Source: Hyphomicrobiales bacterium (lineage in GTDB: Bacteria > Pseudomonadota > Alphaproteobacteria > Rhizobiales > Xanthobacteraceae). Taken from it: a stretch of DNA of 64,000 nucleotides. The number at the start of each line of letters is the position of its first letter. Position 1 is the stretch's first letter. The stretch lies in assembly GCA_016185205.1 (NCBI GenBank), contig JACPOA010000084.1:1-64000 (forward strand). The letters run 5' to 3'. Under the pieces are notes generated by a model. That model searched no databases and was not told the DNA's origin. It worked only from the letters and a program-made list of their open reading frames with translations. This document shows, in pieces, positions 346-8,565 of this stretch. A program made the position numbers and the translations under genes.

Positions 346-3300
346 TCACACCGCCTCCACCTGCACCACGCCGGGCACCGCCTTGATGGCGCCGGCGATC
401 TGCGGCGAGACCTTGAAGCGGCCGGGCAGCTTCACCTCCACCTCGGTGCCCTGCTTCAAGAGCAGCACCACGCTCACTTCGCCGTCGCCGTTGGCTTGCG
501 CCGAGCGCGGCGTATTTCCTTGCGCAGATCGGGCAGGCCCGACCTGCGATGGTTCGAGGCGCTTGGCGACGCCTTCGAGCGGGGCGCCGTCGCGCAGGAA
601 CACGCGCAGGCCCTTGTGCAGATTGGCAGCCGCGGCATCGAGCGGCTCGGCCGACTGGATACGGGCGCGCACCTCGTCGCCCTGCACTTCCGCCGACAGG
701 AACAGCAGCACCGCGGTGCCGGGATCCAGCAGGTCGCGATATTCGGCGAGGCCTTCCGAGAAGATCACCGCCTCGTAATGGCCGGTCGGATCGGACAGGC
801 CGATGATGCCCATCTTGCTGCCGGTGCGCGTGCGCCGCTCCTGGCGCGACACCACGGTGCCGGCAACGCGGCCGGCGGTGGCGCCCATCTTGACCGCGCG
901 CGCGAACTCGGCCCAGGACTGCACCCGCAGTTTTTTCAGCGCGGCGGCGTAATCGTCGAGCGGATGGCCGGAGAGAAAAAAGCCGACCGCTTCGTATTCG
1001 CGGCGCAGCCGCTCGGCCGGCAGCCAGGCCTCCATCTGCGGCAGCACGATAGATTCGCGCTTGTCCCCACCACCGAACAATTCGTTCTGCCCGACCGCGG
1101 CGGTCTCGTGCGCGCGCTGGGCGCGGCCCAACACCTGATCCACGGTCATGAACACCCGGGCGCGGTTCTTCTCGAAGTCGTCGAAGGCGCCGGCGCAGGC
1201 CAGGCTTTCCAGCACGCGCTTGTTGATGGCACGCGGATTGATGCGCCCGGCGAAGTCGGCCAAGTCGGAAAACTTGCGCCCGCCTCGCGCGGCCATGATC
1301 GCCTCCACCGCCTGGCGGCCGACGCCTTTCAAGGCGGCGAGCGCGTAGACGATGGTGTTGCCGTCGACCTCGAAGGCCACGTCGGAGCGGTTGATCGAGG
1401 GCGGATCGACCTTGATGCCGAGCCGCTCGGCCTCGGCGCGGAATTCGGCGAGCTTGTCGGTATTGCCCATGTCGAGCGTCATGGTGGCGGCGAGGAACTC
1501 GACCGGATAATTCGCCTTCATATAGGCGGTCTGGTAGGCGACCAGCGCGTAGGCCGCCGCGTGGCTCTTGTTGAAGCCGTATTCGGCGAAGCGCTCGAGC
1601 AGATCGAAGATGGCGTCGGCCTGGTGGCGCTCGACCCCGCGCTCGACGCTGCCGGAGACGAAACGCTCGCGCTGCGCCTGCATTTCCTTCCTGATCTTCT
1701 TGCCCATGGCGCGGCGCAGCAGGTCGGCTTCGCCGAGCGAGAAGCCGGCCAGGATCTGCGCGGCCTGCATCACCTGTTCCTGGTAGATGATGACGCCGAA
1801 GGTCTCCTTCAGCACGCTTTCCAGCTTGGGGTGAATGTAGTCGGGATGCTCCAGCCCGTGCTTGCGCGCGCAATAGGTCGGGATGTTCGCCATCGGGCCG
1901 GGGCGGTAGAGCGCGACCAGCGCGATGATGTCCTCGAAACGGTCGGGCCGCATGTCGAGCAGCGCGCGCCGCATGCCGGCGCTTTCCAGTTGGAACACGC
2001 CGACCGCTTCCGCGCGCGCCAGCAGGTCATACGTTTTGGCGTCGTCGAGCGGAATGGCGGTGAGATCGATGTCGATGCCGCGGCGGGCCACCAGCGCCAC
2101 CGCGGTCTGCAACACTGTGAGCGTCTTGAGGCCGAGGAAATCGAACTTCACCAGGCCGGCCTGCTCCACCCATTTCATGTTGAACTGGGTCACCGGCATG
2201 TCGGACTTCGGATCGCGATAGAGCGGCACCAGTTCCGACAGCGCGCGGTCGCCGATCACGATACCGGCGGCATGCGTGGAGGCGTGGCGCGTAAGACCCT
2301 CGAGCTTGCGCGCGATGTCGAAGGCGCGCTTGACCACCGGATCGCCGTCGCGCTCGGCTTGCAGCTTGGGTTCGCCCTCAATGGCCTGGGCCAGCGAGAT
2401 CGGGCTGGTCGGGTTCTGCGGCACCAGCTTGCACAGCTTGTCGACCTGGCCGTAGGGCATTTGCAGCACGCGGCCGACGTCGCGCAGCACGCCGCGTGCC
2501 TGCAACGTGCCGAAGGTGATGATCTGCGCCACCTGGTCGCGGCCGTAGCGCTGCTGCACGTATTCGATGACTTCGCCGCGGCGGTCCTGGCAGAAATCGA
2601 TATCGAAGTCCGGCATCGACACGCGCTCGGGATTCAAAAAGCGCTCGAACAACAGGCCGAAGCGGATCGGGTCGAGATCGGTGATGGTGAGCGCATAGGA
2701 GACCAAGGAGCCTGCGCCGGAGCCGCGGCCGGGGCCGACCGGAATACCTTTCATTTTCGCATGCTGGATGAAGTCGGCGACGATGAGGAAGTAGCCGGGA
2801 TATTTCATGCCGGCGATGACGCCGAGCTCGAAGTCGAGCCGCTCGCGATATTCGTCGACCGTGTGGCCGATTGCTACGCCGGCGGTGGAGAGCCGCAGCG
2901 TGAGGCCGGCCTCGGCACGCTTGCGCAACTCCTCGGCCTCGTCGACCACGCTGCCGCCCTCCGCGCCAAGCGAAAAGCGCGGCAGGATCGGCTGATGCGT
3001 GTGCGGACGGAACGAACAGCGCTCGGCGATCTCGACGGTCGAGGCCAGCGCCTCCGGCAGATCGGCGAACAGCTCGCGCATCTCGGCGCGGGTCTTGAAG
3101 CGATGCTCGGGGGTGAGTTGGCGGCGGTCGCTCTCCGAGACGAAGCGGCCTTCGGCGATGCAGATCAGCGCGTCATGCGCCTCGTAGTCGGCGACGGTGG
3201 CGAAATACGGCTCGTTGGTGGCAACCAGCGGAAGATTGTTGTTGTAGGCGAGATCGATCAGCACCGGCTCGGTCATGCGCTCGGCTCTGGTGCCGTGGCG

Positions 3301-3843
3301 CTGCAGTTCGACATAGAGGCGGTCGCCGAACAGGCGCATCAGCGCATCGAGCCTAGTTCCGGCGAGATGGCTCTGCCCCGCGGCAATCGCGAAATCGAGC
3401 GGGCCGCCGGGGCCTCCGGTGAGCGCGACGATGCCGTCGGTTTCACCGCTAAGCCAGTCGAGCTTGAGCCGCGGCGGCTCGTTCGGGCTCGAGTCGAGGA
3501 AGGCGCGCGAGGACAGCCGCATCAGGCTGCGATAGCCGGCCTCAGAGGCGGCCAAGAGCACGATGCGCGTGCGTTCGGCTCCCGCATTGGCGTTAGCGCG
3601 CGGCCCGTGATCGGTGTCGCCGAAATCGATCGCTAAGGCACAGCCGACGATCGGCTGGATGCCGGCGGAGGCGAGCTTCTCGGAGAATTCCAGCGCGCCG
3701 AACATGTTGTCGGTGTCGGTGAGCGCCAAGGCCGCCTGCTTGTCAGCCTTCGCCAGCTCGGCCAGGCGCGCGATGGTGAGCGCGCCCTCCAGCAGCGAAT
3801 AGGACGAGTGCACGTGCAAGTGCACGAAATCGAGATTGGACAA
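346..3843 (-). CDS. dnaE: DNA polymerase III subunit alpha
   Basis: Replicative polymerase catalytic subunit, about 1165 aa from the chosen start. The N-terminal PHP domain begins FVHLHVHSSYSLLEGA. The palm carries PDFDIDFCQDRRGEV with the metal-binding aspartates, followed by the fingers, a helix-hairpin-helix region and a C-terminal OB fold (GTVVSRQERRTRTG...MGIIGLSDPTG). No ATG fits. A TTG at 3843 gives SNLDFVHLHVHSS with AGGGA about 8 nt upstream, while a TTG at 3936 would add 31 residues that look non-coding. The gene lies downstream of a small SOS-type gene on the same strand, separated by a palindromic repeat. Length and motifs fit housekeeping DnaE1 rather than the error-prone DnaE2, and no imuA/imuB lies nearby. 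Confidence 0.96.
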   Translation of the reverse strand: MSNLDFVHLHVHSSYSLLEGALTIARLAELAKADKQAALALTDTDNMFGALEFSEKLASAGIQPIVGCALAIDFGDTDHGPRANANAGAERTRIVLLAASEAGYRSLMRLSSRAFLDSSPNEPPRLKLDWLSGETDGIVALTGGPGGPLDFAIAAGQSHLAGTRLDALMRLFGDRLYVELQRHGTRAERMTEPVLIDLAYNNNLPLVATNEPYFATVADYEAHDALICIAEGRFVSESDRRQLTPEHRFKTRAEMRELFADLPEALASTVEIAERCSFRPHTHQPILPRFSLGAEGGSVVDEAEELRKRAEAGLTLRLSTAGVAIGHTVDEYRERLDFELGVIAGMKYPGYFLIVADFIQHAKMKGIPVGPGRGSGAGSLVSYALTITDLDPIRFGLLFERFLNPERVSMPDFDIDFCQDRRGEVIEYVQQRYGRDQVAQIITFGTLQARGVLRDVGRVLQMPYGQVDKLCKLVPQNPTSPISLAQAIEGEPKLQAERDGDPVVKRAFDIARKLEGLTRHASTHAAGIVIGDRALSELVPLYRDPKSDMPVTQFNMKWVEQAGLVKFDFLGLKTLTVLQTAVALVARRGIDIDLTAIPLDDAKTYDLLARAEAVGVFQLESAGMRRALLDMRPDRFEDIIALVALYRPGPMANIPTYCARKHGLEHPDYIHPKLESVLKETFGVIIYQEQVMQAAQILAGFSLGEADLLRRAMGKKIRKEMQAQRERFVSGSVERGVERHQADAIFDLLERFAEYGFNKSHAAAYALVAYQTAYMKANYPVEFLAATMTLDMGNTDKLAEFRAEAERLGIKVDPPSINRSDVAFEVDGNTIVYALAALKGVGRQAVEAIMAARGGRKFSDLADFAGRINPRAINKRVLESLACAGAFDDFEKNRARVFMTVDQVLGRAQRAHETAAVGQNELFGGGDKRESIVLPQMEAWLPAERLRREYEAVGFFLSGHPLDDYAAALKKLRVQSWAEFARAVKMGATAGRVAGTVVSRQERRTRTGSKMGIIGLSDPTGHYEAVIFSEGLAEYRDLLDPGTAVLLFLSAEVQGDEVRARIQSAEPLDAAAANLHKGLRVFLRDGAPLEGVAKRLEPSQVGPARSAQGNTPRSAQANGDGEVSVVLLLKQGTEVEVKLPGRFKVSPQIAGAIKAVPGVVQVEAV

Positions 3844-3958
3844 GTGGCGATTCCCTGGTTGGCACCCAGAGTGGGGACGCGAGGCCGCGGAGTCCACCGG
3901 CAAGGGCGCGGAACTGCGCGCTATGCCGGTTTTCAACAGGGCGGCGACTGCCCATCAC

Positions 3959-4067
3959 CGTCATTCCGGGACGGCCCGCAGGGCCGGACCCGGAATCCAG
4001 AGGCCTACGCACACCCCGCCCCTGGATTCCGGGTTCGCTCGCTTGCGCTCGCGCCCCGGAATGACGG
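3959..4067. repeat. REP-type inverted repeat (CCGTCATTCCGGG...)
   Basis: The ends are exact inverted arms: CCGTCATTCCGGG at the left and CCCCGGAATGACGG at the right. Inside are a second pair (CCCGGAATCCAG / CTGGATTCCGGG) and a small GGCCCGCAGGGCC hairpin. It separates the 32-codon gene at 4073-4171 from dnaE. Such elements are dispersed through Bradyrhizobiaceae genomes. It may act as a transcription attenuator or RNA stabiliser here, which is inference. Confidence 0.8.
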
Positions 4068-4072
4068 GGGAA

Positions 4073-4171
4073 CTACAGATTACTGAACACCTGCGACCAG
4101 ATGGCGATCATGCCCACGAACAGTGCCAGCGACGCCAGCGCGGCGGCTTCCTGGATGACGGCTTTGACCAT
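4073..4171 (-). CDS. 32-aa SOS-type small inner-membrane protein (SidA-like candidate)
   Basis: An ATG at 4171 is preceded by GGGAGGAAG at optimal spacing and opens a 32-codon frame ending in TAG. The product starts MVKAVIQEAAALASL and has one predicted transmembrane helix (ALASLALFVGMIAIWSQVF) with a short charged N-terminus and almost no C-terminal tail. Upstream is a consensus sigma70-type promoter with a LexA-type box in its spacer (separate entry). Caulobacter SidA, a 29-aa SOS-induced inner-membrane division inhibitor, has the same size, topology and regulation. I cannot compare the sequences here, so the functional link is inference. It may be cotranscribed with dnaE or be monocistronic because of the palindrome between them. 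Confidence 0.7.
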   Translation of the reverse strand: MVKAVIQEAAALASLALFVGMIAIWSQVFSNL

Positions 4172-4196
4172 GGCTTCCTCCCTGGAACGGAGAGAG

Positions 4197-4226
4197 AACA
4201 TAGTTCATGTTATGTTCTTATGTCAA
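4197..4226 (-). promoter_or_regulatory. sigma70-type promoter with LexA (SOS) box in the spacer
   Basis: On the minus strand a perfect -35 TTGACA (4226-4221) is followed after 18 nt by a -10 TATGTT (4202-4197). The spacer contains GAACATAACATGAAC (4217-4203), which read on the plus strand is GTTC-N7-GTTC, the known LexA site of alphaproteobacteria. The predicted transcript start near 4190 gives a leader of about 19 nt containing the ribosome site of the 32-aa gene. The geometry predicts steric repression by LexA and induction by DNA damage. Confidence 0.8.
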
Positions 4227-4463
4227 GCCCCGGTCGTGGGTCAGTTTGAATGGAACAAAATGGACCTCATCGCCGGCCGGTTTTGACCCTTTACCCGGCG
4301 TTGCACAAAAATCACATGTGCATATCAAATGTGGAAACAGGCCGCATTTTTCTCATGCCGCCCTCGACAGACCCTAGGGTCATTACGTAAGTTGCATTCT
4401 GGTTTCCAACGACGTTTGCGGCGTTACTCACGTTCGCAGATGTCGCTTACAAGGGGGTTTAAT

Positions 4464-5150
4464 ATGCGCCGCTTACAATGTGCACTGCTCGCCACTGTTG
4501 CTGCTATCGGCTTCGCGTCGATCGCTTCCGCTGCCGACATGGCGGTTAAAGCGCGGCCGATGGCGCCGCTGCCGGTCGGCTACAATTGGACGGGCTGCTA
4601 CATCGGCGCCAATGTCGGCGGCATCTGGGGAAAATCCAACATCAGCATTCCGGCCTATCCCTCGAACTTTAACATCAACAATTCGAGCTTGTTGGGCGGC
4701 GGCCAGATCGGCTGCAATTACCAGATGAACCAATTCGTTGTCGGCGTGGAAGGCAATTGGGATTGGATGAATGTGAAAGGCGACGCACTATCCGGTGGCG
4801 GCGGCGCCGAACGCTACAGTGTTCGATGGGATTGGGATGCGTCGATTCGCGGCCGCCTCGGCTTTGCGCCGGCAGGCACGCCGTGGCTCCTCTACATCAC
4901 CGGCGGCCCTGCCTGGGCGAAGCTCGGCAGCGCGAACTTCATCCCGGCTTTGACTCCGGCGCAGTCGGGAACGCATAGCGGATGGACGCTCGGCGGTGGC
5001 GCCGAATACCAGTTGACACCCAACTGGATCGCTGGCCTTGAGTACCGTTACTCCTCTTACCAGAGCAAGCGGTACGTCTATCTGGGCCCGGTCGACGTCG
5101 ATCTTAAGACCAACGCGGTCACGGCACGGCTGAGCTACCTGTTCCATTAA
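4464..5150 (+). CDS. outer-membrane beta-barrel porin-family protein, copy 1
   Basis: Predicted Omp25/Omp31-type small outer-membrane barrel of about 228 aa. A Sec signal peptide (MRRLQCALLATVAAIGFASIASA) is followed by a short proline-rich segment and the motif YNWTGCYIGANVGG. Alternating Gly/aromatic strands include LGGGAEYQLTPNWIAGLEYRY, and the protein ends in LSYLFH with a C-terminal aromatic expected for BAM recognition. The ATG at 4464 is preceded by AAGGGGG. An in-frame upstream start exists but would add 45 residues before the signal peptide. It is followed by a strong terminator and by a paralogue with a nearly duplicated leader. Family role is structural or porin-like; the ligand is unknown. 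Confidence 0.88.
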   Translation: MRRLQCALLATVAAIGFASIASAADMAVKARPMAPLPVGYNWTGCYIGANVGGIWGKSNISIPAYPSNFNINNSSLLGGGQIGCNYQMNQFVVGVEGNWDWMNVKGDALSGGGGAERYSVRWDWDASIRGRLGFAPAGTPWLLYITGGPAWAKLGSANFIPALTPAQSGTHSGWTLGGGAEYQLTPNWIAGLEYRYSSYQSKRYVYLGPVDVDLKTNAVTARLSYLFH

Positions 5151-5186
5151 GATATCTCCGCGGTCGCAAAATTGGATTACTGCCAA

Positions 5187-5215
5187 AACCCCGGGCAACT
5201 CCGCCCGGGGTTTTT
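5187..5215 (+). terminator. Rho-independent terminator after porin copy 1
   Basis: A 10-bp stem AACCCCGGGC / GCCCGGGGTT with a 6-nt loop is followed by TTTTT, 37 nt past the stop codon. Confidence 0.85.
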
Positions 5216-5309
5216 CGTTGAAGGCTGTAGCCAACATAAGAGGTCGCCTTAGTTTGCAGCCTTTTTCTTCAAGGTGCCGATTTGGCCCTATCTGCAATAC
5301 CTTCTTCAA

Positions 5310-5561
5310 ACTGACCACTACCCAAGCCCGGGTTGTGGGTCAGTTTCAATGGGGCGAACCGGCCCCCCAGCGCTGGCCTTTTTTTGGCCTCTAGCCAAGC
5401 GTTGCATAAAAATCACGGTTGAAACGCATATGTGGAAACTGGCCGCAGTTGTCCCATACCGCCCTCGACAGACCCATAGGGTTTTGCATAATCTACGTTA
5501 AAGTTTCCAGTGACGTTTGCGGCGTTGCTCACGTTCGCAGATGTCGCTTACCAGGGGGATG
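5310..5561 (+). repeat. duplicated leader region of the second porin gene
   Basis: The 411-nt gap between the porin genes contains a diverged copy of the region at about 4224-4463. Shared blocks in the same order include GTGGGTCAGTTT, GCGTTGCA(C/T)AAAAATCAC, CCGCCCTCGACAGACCC, GACGTTTGCGGCGTT and CTCACGTTCGCAGATGTCGC. The leader was therefore duplicated together with the gene. The conservation of a leader of about 200 nt suggests a shared promoter or RNA regulatory segment. No small gene is supported in either leader. Confidence 0.75.
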
Positions 5562-6299
5562 ATGCGCCGCTTACAATGTGCTCTGCTCGCCACTGCTGCT
5601 GCTATAGGCTTCGCTTCGATCGCCTCAGCGGCCGACATGCCGGCCAAAGCCGTCAGAGGCCCAATTGTAGCGCCGGTCTACAACTGGACCGGCTGCTACA
5701 TCGGCGGGCACGCCGGTGTTGGCTGGGCCAAGAGAGACTGGAGCAACACTGCCAACACCACCGCGTTTGGTGATTTGAGTCCGGGCAATGGCTTCTCTCA
5801 AACCAATAGCGGCTTCGTCGGCGGCGGCCAACTCGGTTGCAACTATCAGGTTAACCAGTGGGTGTTAGGCATCGAGGGCACGTTTTCCGGCACCAGCATC
5901 AAGGGCGACCTCGCCAACGGCACGTTCGGTGCCGCCGACGATGTGTTCTCGTCCAAGATCAACAGTATCGCGACGGTCACCGGCCGCGTCGGCCTCGCCT
6001 TTAACAACTGGCTGCCCTACATCAAGGGCGGTTATGCTGGCGCTAATGTGAACTTTAGCGTTTCCGATACGGTGGGAATCGTCGGCTCGGGCAGCCAAAC
6101 GAGTTGGCACAACGGCTGGACTCTCGGCGGCGGCCTTGAATACGGCCTTACCCCGAACTGGATCCTCGGCATCGAGTACGACTACATCAGTCTAAATTCC
6201 AAGAACTACAACGTCGCCGGCGCTTCGGCAGGAGTCTACACCTTCGACGTCAAGCCGCGCATCTCCCAACTGCTCGCACGCATCAGCTACAAGTTCTAA
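5562..6299 (+). CDS. outer-membrane beta-barrel porin-family protein, copy 2
   Basis: Paralogue of the preceding gene, about 245 aa. The signal peptide (MRRLQCALLATAAAIGFASIASA) differs from copy 1 by one residue. It is followed by YNWTGCYIGGHAGVGW, repeated barrel strands (GFVGGGQLGCNYQVNQWVLGIEG, GGLEYGLTPNWILGIEYDY) and a C-terminal phenylalanine (RISYKF). ATG ATG occurs at 5559 and 5562. The AGGGGG ribosome site at 5553-5558 leaves no space for 5559, so 5562 is preferred. The mature parts are much more diverged than the signal peptides and leaders, which suggests diversifying barrels behind a conserved expression module. Ligand unknown. Confidence 0.87.
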   Translation: MRRLQCALLATAAAIGFASIASAADMPAKAVRGPIVAPVYNWTGCYIGGHAGVGWAKRDWSNTANTTAFGDLSPGNGFSQTNSGFVGGGQLGCNYQVNQWVLGIEGTFSGTSIKGDLANGTFGAADDVFSSKINSIATVTGRVGLAFNNWLPYIKGGYAGANVNFSVSDTVGIVGSGSQTSWHNGWTLGGGLEYGLTPNWILGIEYDYISLNSKNYNVAGASAGVYTFDVKPRISQLLARISYKF

Positions 6300-6572: not shown

Positions 6573-7304
6573 TCACTCCATCTCCACCACCTGCCCCTCG
6601 CGCAAGGTCACGCGCCGGTCCATGCGGGCGGCGATCTCCATGTTGTGGGTGGCGATGATGGTGGCGAGCCCCGAGGCGCGCACCAATTGGGTGAGCGCGG
6701 CGAACACATGGTCGGCGGTGTGCAGGTGGAGATTGCGGGTCGGCTCGTCGGCCAGCCGAATGCGCGGCGCAGTGGCGACCGCGCGCGCGATCGCCCCGCG
6801 CTGCTGCTCGCCGCCCGAGAGTTCCGCCGGCCGGTGATTGAGTCGCGCGCTCAAGCCGAGATAGCTCAACAGCTCGACCGCGCGTTTGTTCGCTTCCTTG
6901 CGCGTCAGGCCGCGGATCATCTGCGGCATCAGCACGTTTTCCAGCGCGGTGAATTCCGGCAGCAGATGGTGCGACTGGTAGATGAAGCCGATCTCGTTGC
7001 GGCGGATGCGGGTGCGTTCGGCATCGGACAGGATCGCGGTGGCGCGGCCGTCGATATAGACGTCGCCCTGGTCGGGATGCTCCAAGAGGCCGGCGATGTG
7101 CAGCAACGTCGATTTGCCGGCGCCCGACGGCGCCACCAGCGCCACCGATTGCCCGGGCCAGATCGCCAGTTCCGCGCCGCTGAGGATATGCAGTGCTTCG
7201 TCGCCCTGCCGGTAGGTGCGCTCGATGGCGTTGAGGAACAGGACCGGGATGTCATCGTCGTCCTGCGTCGCCTCGACGCCGGCGTCGGCAACCGCGTCAC
7301 TCAT
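6573..7304 (-). CDS. lolD: LolD-type lipoprotein-releasing ABC transporter ATPase
   Basis: ATPase of the Lol system, which extracts outer-membrane lipoproteins from the inner membrane for transfer to LolA. 243 aa. It has a Walker A ([12 protein letters not shown]), a Q-loop ([13 protein letters not shown]), the ABC signature (LSGGEQQR), a Walker B region ([11 protein letters not shown]) and an H-loop histidine (IIATHN). The signature-to-Walker B segment reads [10 protein letters not shown] rather than the usual ADEPTGNLD, so the D-loop is unusual. It overlaps the upstream permease gene by 8 nt, indicating translational coupling. Confidence 0.93.
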
Positions 7305-8565
7305 AGCGCAGCGCCTCCACCGGATCGAGGCGGGCCGCGCGCCAGGACGGATAAAGCGTGGCGAGGAGCGACAGCACCAGCGCCATCACCACCACCGCGC
7401 TGGTCTCGGCCGTGTCCATGTTGGCGGGCAGACGCGAGAGGAAATACAGCTCCGGCGAGAACAATTCGGTGCTGGTCATCCACGACAGGAACTGCCGGAT
7501 GCTCTCGACATTCCAGCAGATCACCACGCCGAGCAGGAAGCCGACGATGGTGCCGACCACGCCGATCGAGGCCCCCGTGATCAGGAACACGCGCATGATG
7601 GCGCCCTGGCTCGCGCCCATGGTGCGCAGGATCGCAATGTCCTGGCCCTTGTCTTTTACCAGCATGATCAGGCCGGACACGATGTTGAGCGCGGCCACCA
7701 GGACAATGAGGGTCAAGATCAGGAACATCACATTGCGCTCGACCTGCAGCGCGTTGAAGAAGGTGGCGTTGCGCTGGCGCCAGTCGATCATGAAGATCGG
7801 CCGCTGCGCTGAGTCCTGCACCGCTTTGCGGTAGCGGTCGACGCGGTCGGGATTGTCGGTATAGACCTCGATGGCGGTGACGTCGCCGGCGCGGTTGAAA
7901 TAGGCCTGCGCCTCCTTCAGCGGCATGAACACCATGGCGTTGTCGTATTCCGACATGCCGATCTCGAACACCGCGGCGATCTTGTAGACCTTGATGCGCG
8001 GCGTGGTGCCCATCGGCGTCACCGCGCCGCGCGGCGCCACCAGCGTGATGTTGTCGCCCGCGCGCAGCGAGAGCTGGTCGGCGAGCCTTCGCCCGATGGC
8101 GACGCCCTGGCCGTCGTCGAAACCGCCGAGCGAGCCCTGCTTGATGTTGTTGATGACCGAGGGCAGCTTCTCCAGATCCATCAGACGGATGCCGCGAACG
8201 AGCACGCCGCCGGCATTGAACGGCGAGGACGCCAGCGCCTGGCCTTCGACGATGGGAGCCGCCAGCTTGATGCCTTTGACGGCATTGATGCGCGCGGCCA
8301 CCTCCTCCCAATCGGTCAGCGGCTTTTCCAGCGGCTGGATCAGCAGGTGGCCGTTGAGGCCGAGGATCTTGTCGAGCAACTCGGTGCGAAAGCCGTTCAT
8401 CACCGCCATCACGATGATGAGGGTGGCGACGCCGAGCGTGATGCCGAGGAAGGAGAACCCGGCGATCACCGAGATGAATCCTTCCTTGCGCCGCGCCCGC
8501 AGGTAGCGCAGCGACAGCATCCATTCGAACGGCGAGAAGGGCCGCGTCCCGTTGGGCTCGGTCAT
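7297..8565 (-). CDS. lolC: LolC/LolE-family lipoprotein-releasing permease (LolF-like single subunit)
   Basis: Inner-membrane permease, 422 aa. An N-terminal TM segment ([29 protein letters not shown]) is followed by a large periplasmic MacB-like domain of about 220 residues. Three C-terminal TM segments follow ([60 protein letters not shown]), and the protein ends [11 protein letters not shown] as the family does. Only one permease gene accompanies lolD. This fits the single LolF arrangement described outside gammaproteobacteria, working as a homodimer, rather than separate LolC and LolE. It precedes lolD in the same transcript. Confidence 0.93.

What the first reader, a model, noticed from the sequence alone, without database searches (positions are those of the whole stretch)
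4073..4226. LexA-controlled 32-aa membrane protein beside dnaE
A complete SOS-type expression unit is readable: TTGACA, an 18-nt spacer holding GAACATAACATGAAC, TATGTT, GGGAGGAAG, then a 32-codon ORF encoding one TM helix. It resembles Caulobacter SidA in size and control but lies next to dnaE. It is short enough to be missed by gene callers. If real, it could link DNA damage to division arrest in Rhizobiales and might couple to dnaE expression.
Basis: partly seen in the sequence, partly recalled or inferred. Interest (0 to 1): 0.82.

Follow-up and report, generated by a model that had tools for sequence, protein, structure and literature searches.

The report
SOS-controlled mini membrane protein beside dnaE
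A tiny 32-residue membrane protein that bacteria of this group probably switch on when their DNA is damaged sits, behind a conserved double switch, next to the main DNA polymerase gene, and is most likely a brake that stops cell division until the damage is repaired.

Summary
The 32-codon ORF (window 4171-4073, minus) is a real gene under purifying selection: 31 of 36 same-genus genomes, own included, and 230 of 296 family genomes match. Two LexA-type boxes, not one, overlap its promoter as GAAC-N7-GAAC-TAT-GTTC-N7-GTTC; 28 of 30 genus loci keep the pair. That operator, scanned alone over a public genome collection, hit 72 stretches; 70 carry this ORF and 69 carry dnaE directly downstream. In a draw of 70 genomes of the order made through dnaE, 35 have a box upstream of dnaE (permuted words 0-1) and 33 of those a small hydrophobic ORF after it. 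Similar peptides stand at the same place in other alphaproteobacterial orders. Caulobacter sidA, a proven 29-aa SOS division inhibitor, has the locus number next to the one inferred for dnaE, so dnaE adjacency is probably a likeness, not a difference. Best reading: the Hyphomicrobiales counterpart of SidA, blocking septal FtsW/I/N. LexA binding, induction and function are inferred; SidA's own sequence could not be compared. Nothing shows that dnaE is co-transcribed.

The parts
4073..4171 (-). 32-codon ORF with stop, MVKAVIQEAAALASLALFVGMIAIWSQVFSNL, one predicted membrane helix (hydropathy only)
4197..4226 (-). sigma-70-type promoter TTGACA-18-TATGTT
   Evidence: TTGAC with TATGTT or AATGTT in 28 of 30 genus loci
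4203..4217 (+). LexA-type box 1 (GTTC-N7-GTTC on +; GAAC-N7-GAAC on the gene strand), inside the -35/-10 spacer
4185..4199 (-).
4174..4182 (-). Shine-Dalgarno-like GGGAGGAAG
   Evidence: upstream sequences of relatives
346..3843 (-). dnaE1 (replicative DNA polymerase III alpha), downstream neighbour on the same strand; TTG start at 3843 is inferred
   Evidence: gene name from its sequence (recalled)
3957..4070 (.). long imperfect palindrome between the ORF and dnaE
6573..8565 (-). lolD and lolC, conserved upstream neighbours on the same strand (names from sequence, recalled)

Best explanation
The ORF encodes an SOS-induced, single-helix inner-membrane peptide. Without damage, LexA dimers on two facing boxes cover the promoter spacer, the -10 and the start site and keep it tightly off. 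After DNA damage, RecA-stimulated LexA cleavage frees the promoter, the peptide is made from a good ribosome site and accumulates, and one conserved face of its helix binds the late divisome (FtsW, perhaps FtsI/FtsN), holding septal wall synthesis inactive until repair. It works like Caulobacter SidA and is probably its positional orthologue in Hyphomicrobiales: a fast-evolving gene kept beside dnaE in much of the Alphaproteobacteria. Shown: the gene is coding and conserved; LexA-type boxes are conserved on its promoter; the lolC-lolD-ORF-dnaE order is conserved. Inferred: LexA binding, induction, membrane insertion, target and division arrest.
For: Coding and conserved. Operator: 28 of 30 genus loci and 16 of 18 other same-family loci L149-L166; the operator-only scan finds 72 stretches, 70 with the ORF. 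Neighbourhood: dnaE downstream on the same strand in 69 of 72; the others are an unrelated Chitinophaga match and two loci ending within 390 nt downstream. Order, drawn through dnaE: GAAC-N7-GAAC upstream in 35 of 70, eleven permuted words 0-1, other spacings 0-5; a small hydrophobic ORF follows in 33 of 35, with ATG start in 32 of 35 against 168 of 2464 control positions in unboxed loci. Class: 19 of 97, permuted words 0-2, other spacings 0-6; all 19 are followed by such an ORF, one only with a non-ATG start. Of 16 distinct peptides from other orders, 14 score above at least 196 of their 200 shuffles with the order profile. Co-absence: of 14 no-hit family genomes with 800 nt upstream of dnaE held, 13 have no box, and the one with boxes has a diverged 32-aa ORF. 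Helix face: conservation period of 100 degrees, P 0.0006 in A3, F18 and W25 invariant. One FtsW/RodA-family protein in the genome. SidA: 29-aa inner-membrane, LexA-controlled, interacts with FtsW and FtsN (PMC4211646, passages).
Against: No induction, binding or phenotype data. By sequence alone the family does not leave the order: 17 of 387 class genomes reached E 0.05, and of the 13 outside the order only one (L225) has dnaE beside it. No exact box was found within 700 nt upstream of dnaE in 35 of 70 order genomes; this undercounts, since L388 and L392 come from genomes with good profile hits farther from dnaE, but the gene is clearly dispensable or replaced in many. In the closer set A2 the helical periodicity is not significant (P 0.19). 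10 of 40 weaker order hits lack an exact box, and L187's only exact box is at -156. Two of 16 other-order peptides fail or nearly fail the shuffle test (L322, 59 of 200 shuffles reach it; L302, 9), as do L120, L394 and L415 (57, 66, 89). The next Caulobacter locus number after sidA, CCNA_02005, is a nucleoside hydrolase (PMC3667746, passage), not lolD.
Confidence: 0.66

Rival explanations
1. SOS-induced membrane toxin of the TisB/DinQ kind: the peptide depolarises or disturbs the membrane to slow growth or favour persistence, rather than binding the divisome.
For: Size, one hydrophobic helix and LexA control fit TisB/DinQ equally well (abstract starts in the listings).
Against: No long structured leader is evident: 13 nt separate box 2 from the ATG, and the short leader plus ORF is not unusually folded (z +1.10). 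One helix face is conserved across the order (A3), which suggests a protein partner. The position beside dnaE is fixed. An antisense RNA gene was not searched for.
Confidence: 0.17
2. The unit is mainly an SOS promoter for dnaE1: LexA control lets damage raise replicative polymerase, and the peptide is a minor or leader product.
For: dnaE is downstream on the same strand in 69 of 72 operator loci; no simple intrinsic terminator found in window 3800-4300.
Against: The peptide itself is under strong selection; the distance to dnaE varies 150-716 nt; a -82.6 kcal/mol hairpin intervenes in the window; the word dnaE does not occur in the main text of a Caulobacter SOS regulon paper (PMC12700426, word search; its supplementary gene tables were not seen).
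Confidence: 0.08
3. SOS-induced modulator of another inner-membrane target, such as the neighbouring Lol lipoprotein exporter.
For: lolD and lolC are conserved upstream neighbours (56 and 52 of 72).
Against: No functional link known to me; the distance to lolD varies widely.
Confidence: 0.07
4. Chance ORF and chance motif.
For: Single GTTC-N7-GTTC matches are at chance level in the window and genome.
Against: Selection, operator conservation and controls.
Confidence: 0.01

Closest known systems
SidA of Caulobacter crescentus (CCNA_02004)
   Same: About 30 residues, inner-membrane, LexA-controlled, Alphaproteobacteria; beside dnaE by locus-number inference
   Different: Other order; 32 not 29 residues; sequence similarity untested; two facing LexA boxes in this family (whether sidA has one or two was not seen); lolD rather than a nucleoside hydrolase on the other side
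YneA (Bacillus), SosA (Staphylococcus), DidA (Caulobacter)
   Same: Damage-induced membrane division inhibitors; YneA also acts on FtsW (titles and abstract starts; DidA from passages)
   Different: yneA is called an unrelated gene in PMC4211646 (passage); larger (recalled); DidA is SOS-independent
TisB and DinQ of Escherichia coli
   Same: SOS-induced single-helix membrane peptides (abstract starts)
   Different: Toxins with antisense RNA control; no dnaE linkage (TisB details recalled)
SulA of Escherichia coli
   Same: Same physiological role expected
   Different: Acts on FtsZ; not widely conserved beyond gammaproteobacteria (PMC4211646, passage)

Membership tests
LexA (SOS) regulon of Alphaproteobacteria | GTTC-N7-GTTC box overlapping the promoter, conserved | tested here: met
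   motif named in PMC12700426 (passage); boxes before lexA and recA in this genome
LexA (SOS) regulon of Alphaproteobacteria | LexA binding and damage induction | not testable with these tools
   needs wet work
SidA-type SOS division inhibitors | About 30-residue membrane peptide | tested here: met
   32 residues in 30 of 30 genus loci; best 17-residue hydropathy mean 2.24 (in the 42-aa reading); the structure job did not return
SidA-type SOS division inhibitors | Sequence homology to Caulobacter SidA | not tested
   SidA's sequence was not retrieved: no Caulobacter genome could be named among the handles
SidA-type SOS division inhibitors | Gene beside dnaE | tested here: inconclusive
   Met for this family; for sidA only inferred from locus numbers
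SidA-type SOS division inhibitors | Binds FtsW/FtsN and blocks division | not testable with these tools
   An FtsW-family protein exists in the genome; interaction untested
TisB/DinQ-type toxins | Structured leader and antisense RNA antitoxin | tested here: inconclusive
   Only 13 nt between box 2 and ATG and fold z +1.10 speak against a structured leader; antisense RNA not searched for
Any Pfam, NCBIfam or PHROGs family | Profile match | tested here: not met
   0 of 40 members match at E 0.01 in each library

The most novel reading that the evidence does not exclude
An ancestral alphaproteobacterial damage-checkpoint locus: a LexA-controlled SidA-type division inhibitor has been kept beside dnaE since early in the class while its sequence drifted almost past recognition, and in some lineages its SOS promoter also reads into dnaE1, coupling replicative polymerase supply to division arrest.
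Probability: 0.2. Interest if true: 0.85.

Novelty: new member of a known kind. Interest (0 to 1): 0.7.

Why it matters
[quoted passage not shown] That is a limited search: most subscription papers, the original SidA paper among them, were not seen. This gives a specific, easily deleted candidate with a findable address, upstream of dnaE. It suggests that SidA is not a Caulobacter oddity but one of a widespread family without a library model, and it offers many natural variants for mapping how a 30-residue helix could switch off septal wall synthesis.

Tried and rejected
Chance origin: rejected. Known-family match: none (the NCBIfam hit, 13.9 bits against a cut-off of 60, is on hydrophobic residues). 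Operon with dnaE: no support beyond adjacency. Structure prediction of the ORF was submitted but had not returned; nothing rests on it. Looking for a Caulobacter-like locus by a nucleoside-hydrolase motif in L252-L320 gave nothing. Paper searches for the dnaE locus tag CCNA_02003 gave nothing, hence the inference from offsets.

Rows dropped or partial: one search covers 97 of the 109 class loci held (12 gave no DnaE position), out of 187 genomes with a dnaE match; the later regions were picked by me from the ranked list, mostly larger genomes. The 19 boxed class loci include two of the same order; the other 17 come from 11 families, and L291's peptide equals L279's, so 16 were tested. One search covers 70 of the 71 genomes. 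One search left 66 genomes without a match; only the 20 listed were followed, 16 gave dnaE and two of those were cut at contig ends. Searches cover 40 of the weaker hits. The scan demanded TAT between the boxes, so relatives with another middle, such as the AAT of L149, were not found by it. The nine added to the 61 strict matches were judged by eye.

Full report
What is there. On the minus strand, 4226-4073 reads TTGACA, an 18-nt spacer, TATGTT, a GGGAGGAAG ribosome site and a 32-codon ORF. The spacer contains GAACATAACATGAAC, the alphaproteobacterial LexA box GTTC-N7-GTTC (motif as given in PMC12700426, passage) read from the other strand. A second box, GTTCTCTCTCCGTTC, follows three bases later and faces the first. 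Box 1 fills the spacer; box 2 covers the end of the -10 and the presumed start of transcription.

Is it more than chance? A lone box is not: 2 matches in the window against 2.00 expected, 91 in the genome against 124 for the reversed word. The pair and its conservation are. The ORF matches 31 of 36 same-genus genomes, own included, and 33 of 60 searched in all; of the two outside the genus one is marginal (E 0.66) and one good (E 1.9e-5). In 30 loci the peptide is always 32 residues, and 28 have the full double operator; the two exceptions have ambiguous bases or a contig end upstream. Synonymous differences (mean pS 0.56) exceed replacement ones (pN 0.14) over 29 distinct ORFs. Codon positions 1/2/3 have majority frequencies 0.82/0.97/0.68, falling to 0.41 in the 80 nt after the stop (29 loci). 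So the frame is real and selected.

Operator scan. GAAC-N7-GAAC-TAT-GTTC-N7-GTTC, used without the ORF, was scanned over genome contigs: 72 stretches. 61 pass a strict peptide pattern and 9 more show the peptide by eye in the same output (L078, L089, L091, L102, L109, L110, L112, L118, L144), so 70 of 72. The exceptions are L082 (Chitinophaga, taken as chance) and L120 (Cohaesibacteraceae, a different short hydrophobic ORF at the same place). Record titles name Pseudolabrys, Pseudorhodoplanes, Rhodoplanes, Bradyrhizobium, Rhodopseudomonas and Tardiphaga among others. The double operator with a 3-nt middle is also in 16 of 18 other same-family loci (L149-L166) but in 0 of 51 loci L167-L217, nearly all from other families: it looks like a feature of this family, while most of the others have single boxes.

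Neighbourhood. dnaE lies downstream on the same strand in 69 of the 72 stretches, L120 included; besides L082, L089 and L114 end within 390 nt. LolD is found in 56, LolC in 52 and ProS in 28, all upstream on the same strand. So the order is proS-lolC-lolD-ORF-dnaE. The distance from operator to dnaE varies from 150 to 716 nt. In the window a palindrome with a predicted fold of -82.6 kcal/mol (z -5.91) lies in it, and no simple terminator was found. This neither shows nor excludes read-through.

How far it reaches. In the family, 230 of 296 genomes and 35 of 47 genera match. In the order, 109 of 397 genomes and 39 of 142 genera match at E 0.05. Weaker hits were tested independently: of 40 fetched (E 6.5e-7 to 0.032), 30 have an exact box within 160 nt upstream, one of them (L187) only at -156, and 35 have dnaE after the ORF on the same strand. 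A second draw started from dnaE, not from the peptide: 70 of 71 order genomes gave a dnaE place. 35 of 70 have GAAC-N7-GAAC within 700 nt upstream, against 0 or 1 for each of the eleven other orderings of the same letters and 0 to 5 for other spacings; 33 of the 35 are followed by a 22-48-residue hydrophobic ORF. With ATG starts only it is 32 of 35, against 168 of 2464 control positions in unboxed loci.

Outside the order. A profile search of 387 class genomes gave 17 hits at E 0.05; 13 lie outside the order and only one of these (L225) has dnaE beside it, so sequence alone does not carry further. Starting from dnaE, 19 of 97 examined class loci have the forward box, permuted words 0 to 2, other spacings 0 to 6, and all 19 are followed by a small hydrophobic ORF, one only with a non-ATG start. 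Two of the 19 are of the same order; the other 17 come from 11 families. Of 16 distinct peptides from these, 14 score above at least 196 of their 200 own shuffles with the order profile; L302 (9 shuffles reach it) and L322 (59) do not. This suggests one old, fast-changing family; it does not prove it.

Absence is concerted. Of the 66 family genomes without a profile hit, the 20 listed were followed; 16 gave dnaE and two of those were cut by contig ends. Of the 14 left, 13 have no box, and the one with boxes (L364) has a double operator and a diverged 32-residue ORF that the profile had missed.

LexA in this genome. A LexA gene is present (61.1 bits) with a box starting 83 nt before its ORF, and recA has one starting 117 nt before its ORF. 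Boxes also lie before ORFs that I read as UvrA/Ssb and RadA (names from sequence, recalled). Many of the genome's 91 matches are certainly chance.

Mechanism. The peptide has one hydrophobic stretch, with a basic residue (K3) near the N-terminus and an acidic one (E8) at its start. Across 40 diverse members, conservation repeats with the 100-degree period of a helix (P 0.0006), with F18 and W25 invariant (A3). In the closer set A2 the period is not significant (P 0.19). This points to a conserved face for a partner in the membrane. Caulobacter SidA, a 29-residue LexA-controlled inner-membrane protein, stops division through FtsW and interacts with FtsN (PMC4211646, passages). The genome has one FtsW/RodA-family protein. 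The most likely mechanism is therefore damage-induced blocking of septal wall synthesis. Everything after the conserved operator is inferred.

SidA and dnaE. Papers give sidA as CCNA_02004 (PMC10769358, passage), dnaE as CC1926 and lexA as CC1902 (PMC1839093, passage), and lexA as CCNA_01979 (PMC11535069, passage). The offset of 77 puts dnaE at CCNA_02003, next to sidA. CCNA_02005 is a nucleoside hydrolase (PMC3667746, passage). This is inference from numbers; strand and distance are unknown to me. I could not read the Caulobacter genome, nor compare sequences.

Novelty. None of 40 members matches Pfam, NCBIfam or PHROGs at E 0.01 and no PDB chain matches at E 1. The paper searches listed no paper whose title or abstract start describes this gene; only listings and the passages named here were read, and the original SidA paper was not seen, so an earlier remark on relatives cannot be excluded. 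It is a new member, in effect a large new branch, of a known kind.

Noticed in passing
window 3957-4070: Large imperfect palindrome (CGTCATTCCGGG arms) between the ORF and dnaE, fold -82.6 kcal/mol; the arm occurs at two other places in the window with one mismatch.
   Followed up: partly
window 4329-6299: Two tandem Omp31-like beta-barrel ORFs (name recalled) with similar upstream stretches, between lolD and the small ORF; a related protein lies upstream in 11 of 18 family loci L149-L166 but in 2 of 72.
   Followed up: no
L238 851-865 and 1116-1130 (own genome C29): The only other exact GAACATAACATGAAC in the genome, and a nearby LexA-type box starting 59 nt before a 630-aa ORF that looks like a type III restriction methylase (name recalled).
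   Followed up: partly
L045, L049 (own genome C16, C18): LexA-type boxes beside a HigB-like and a HigA-like ORF (names from sequence, recalled).
   Followed up: no
L120, L394, L415: Peptides of the type M[LI]VL[KR][DE]xCALxV at the same LexA-box and dnaE position but without profile similarity: possibly a replaced inhibitor.
   Followed up: partly
L168, L171-L176: One family (f20) carries two boxes in another arrangement, at about -82 and -51, which may mean that double control arose more than once.
   Followed up: no
L178, L186, L187, L207, L212-L214: One family (f44) has imperfect boxes such as GAACAAAACAAATAC before a 27-31-aa member, perhaps a drifted LexA site.
   Followed up: no
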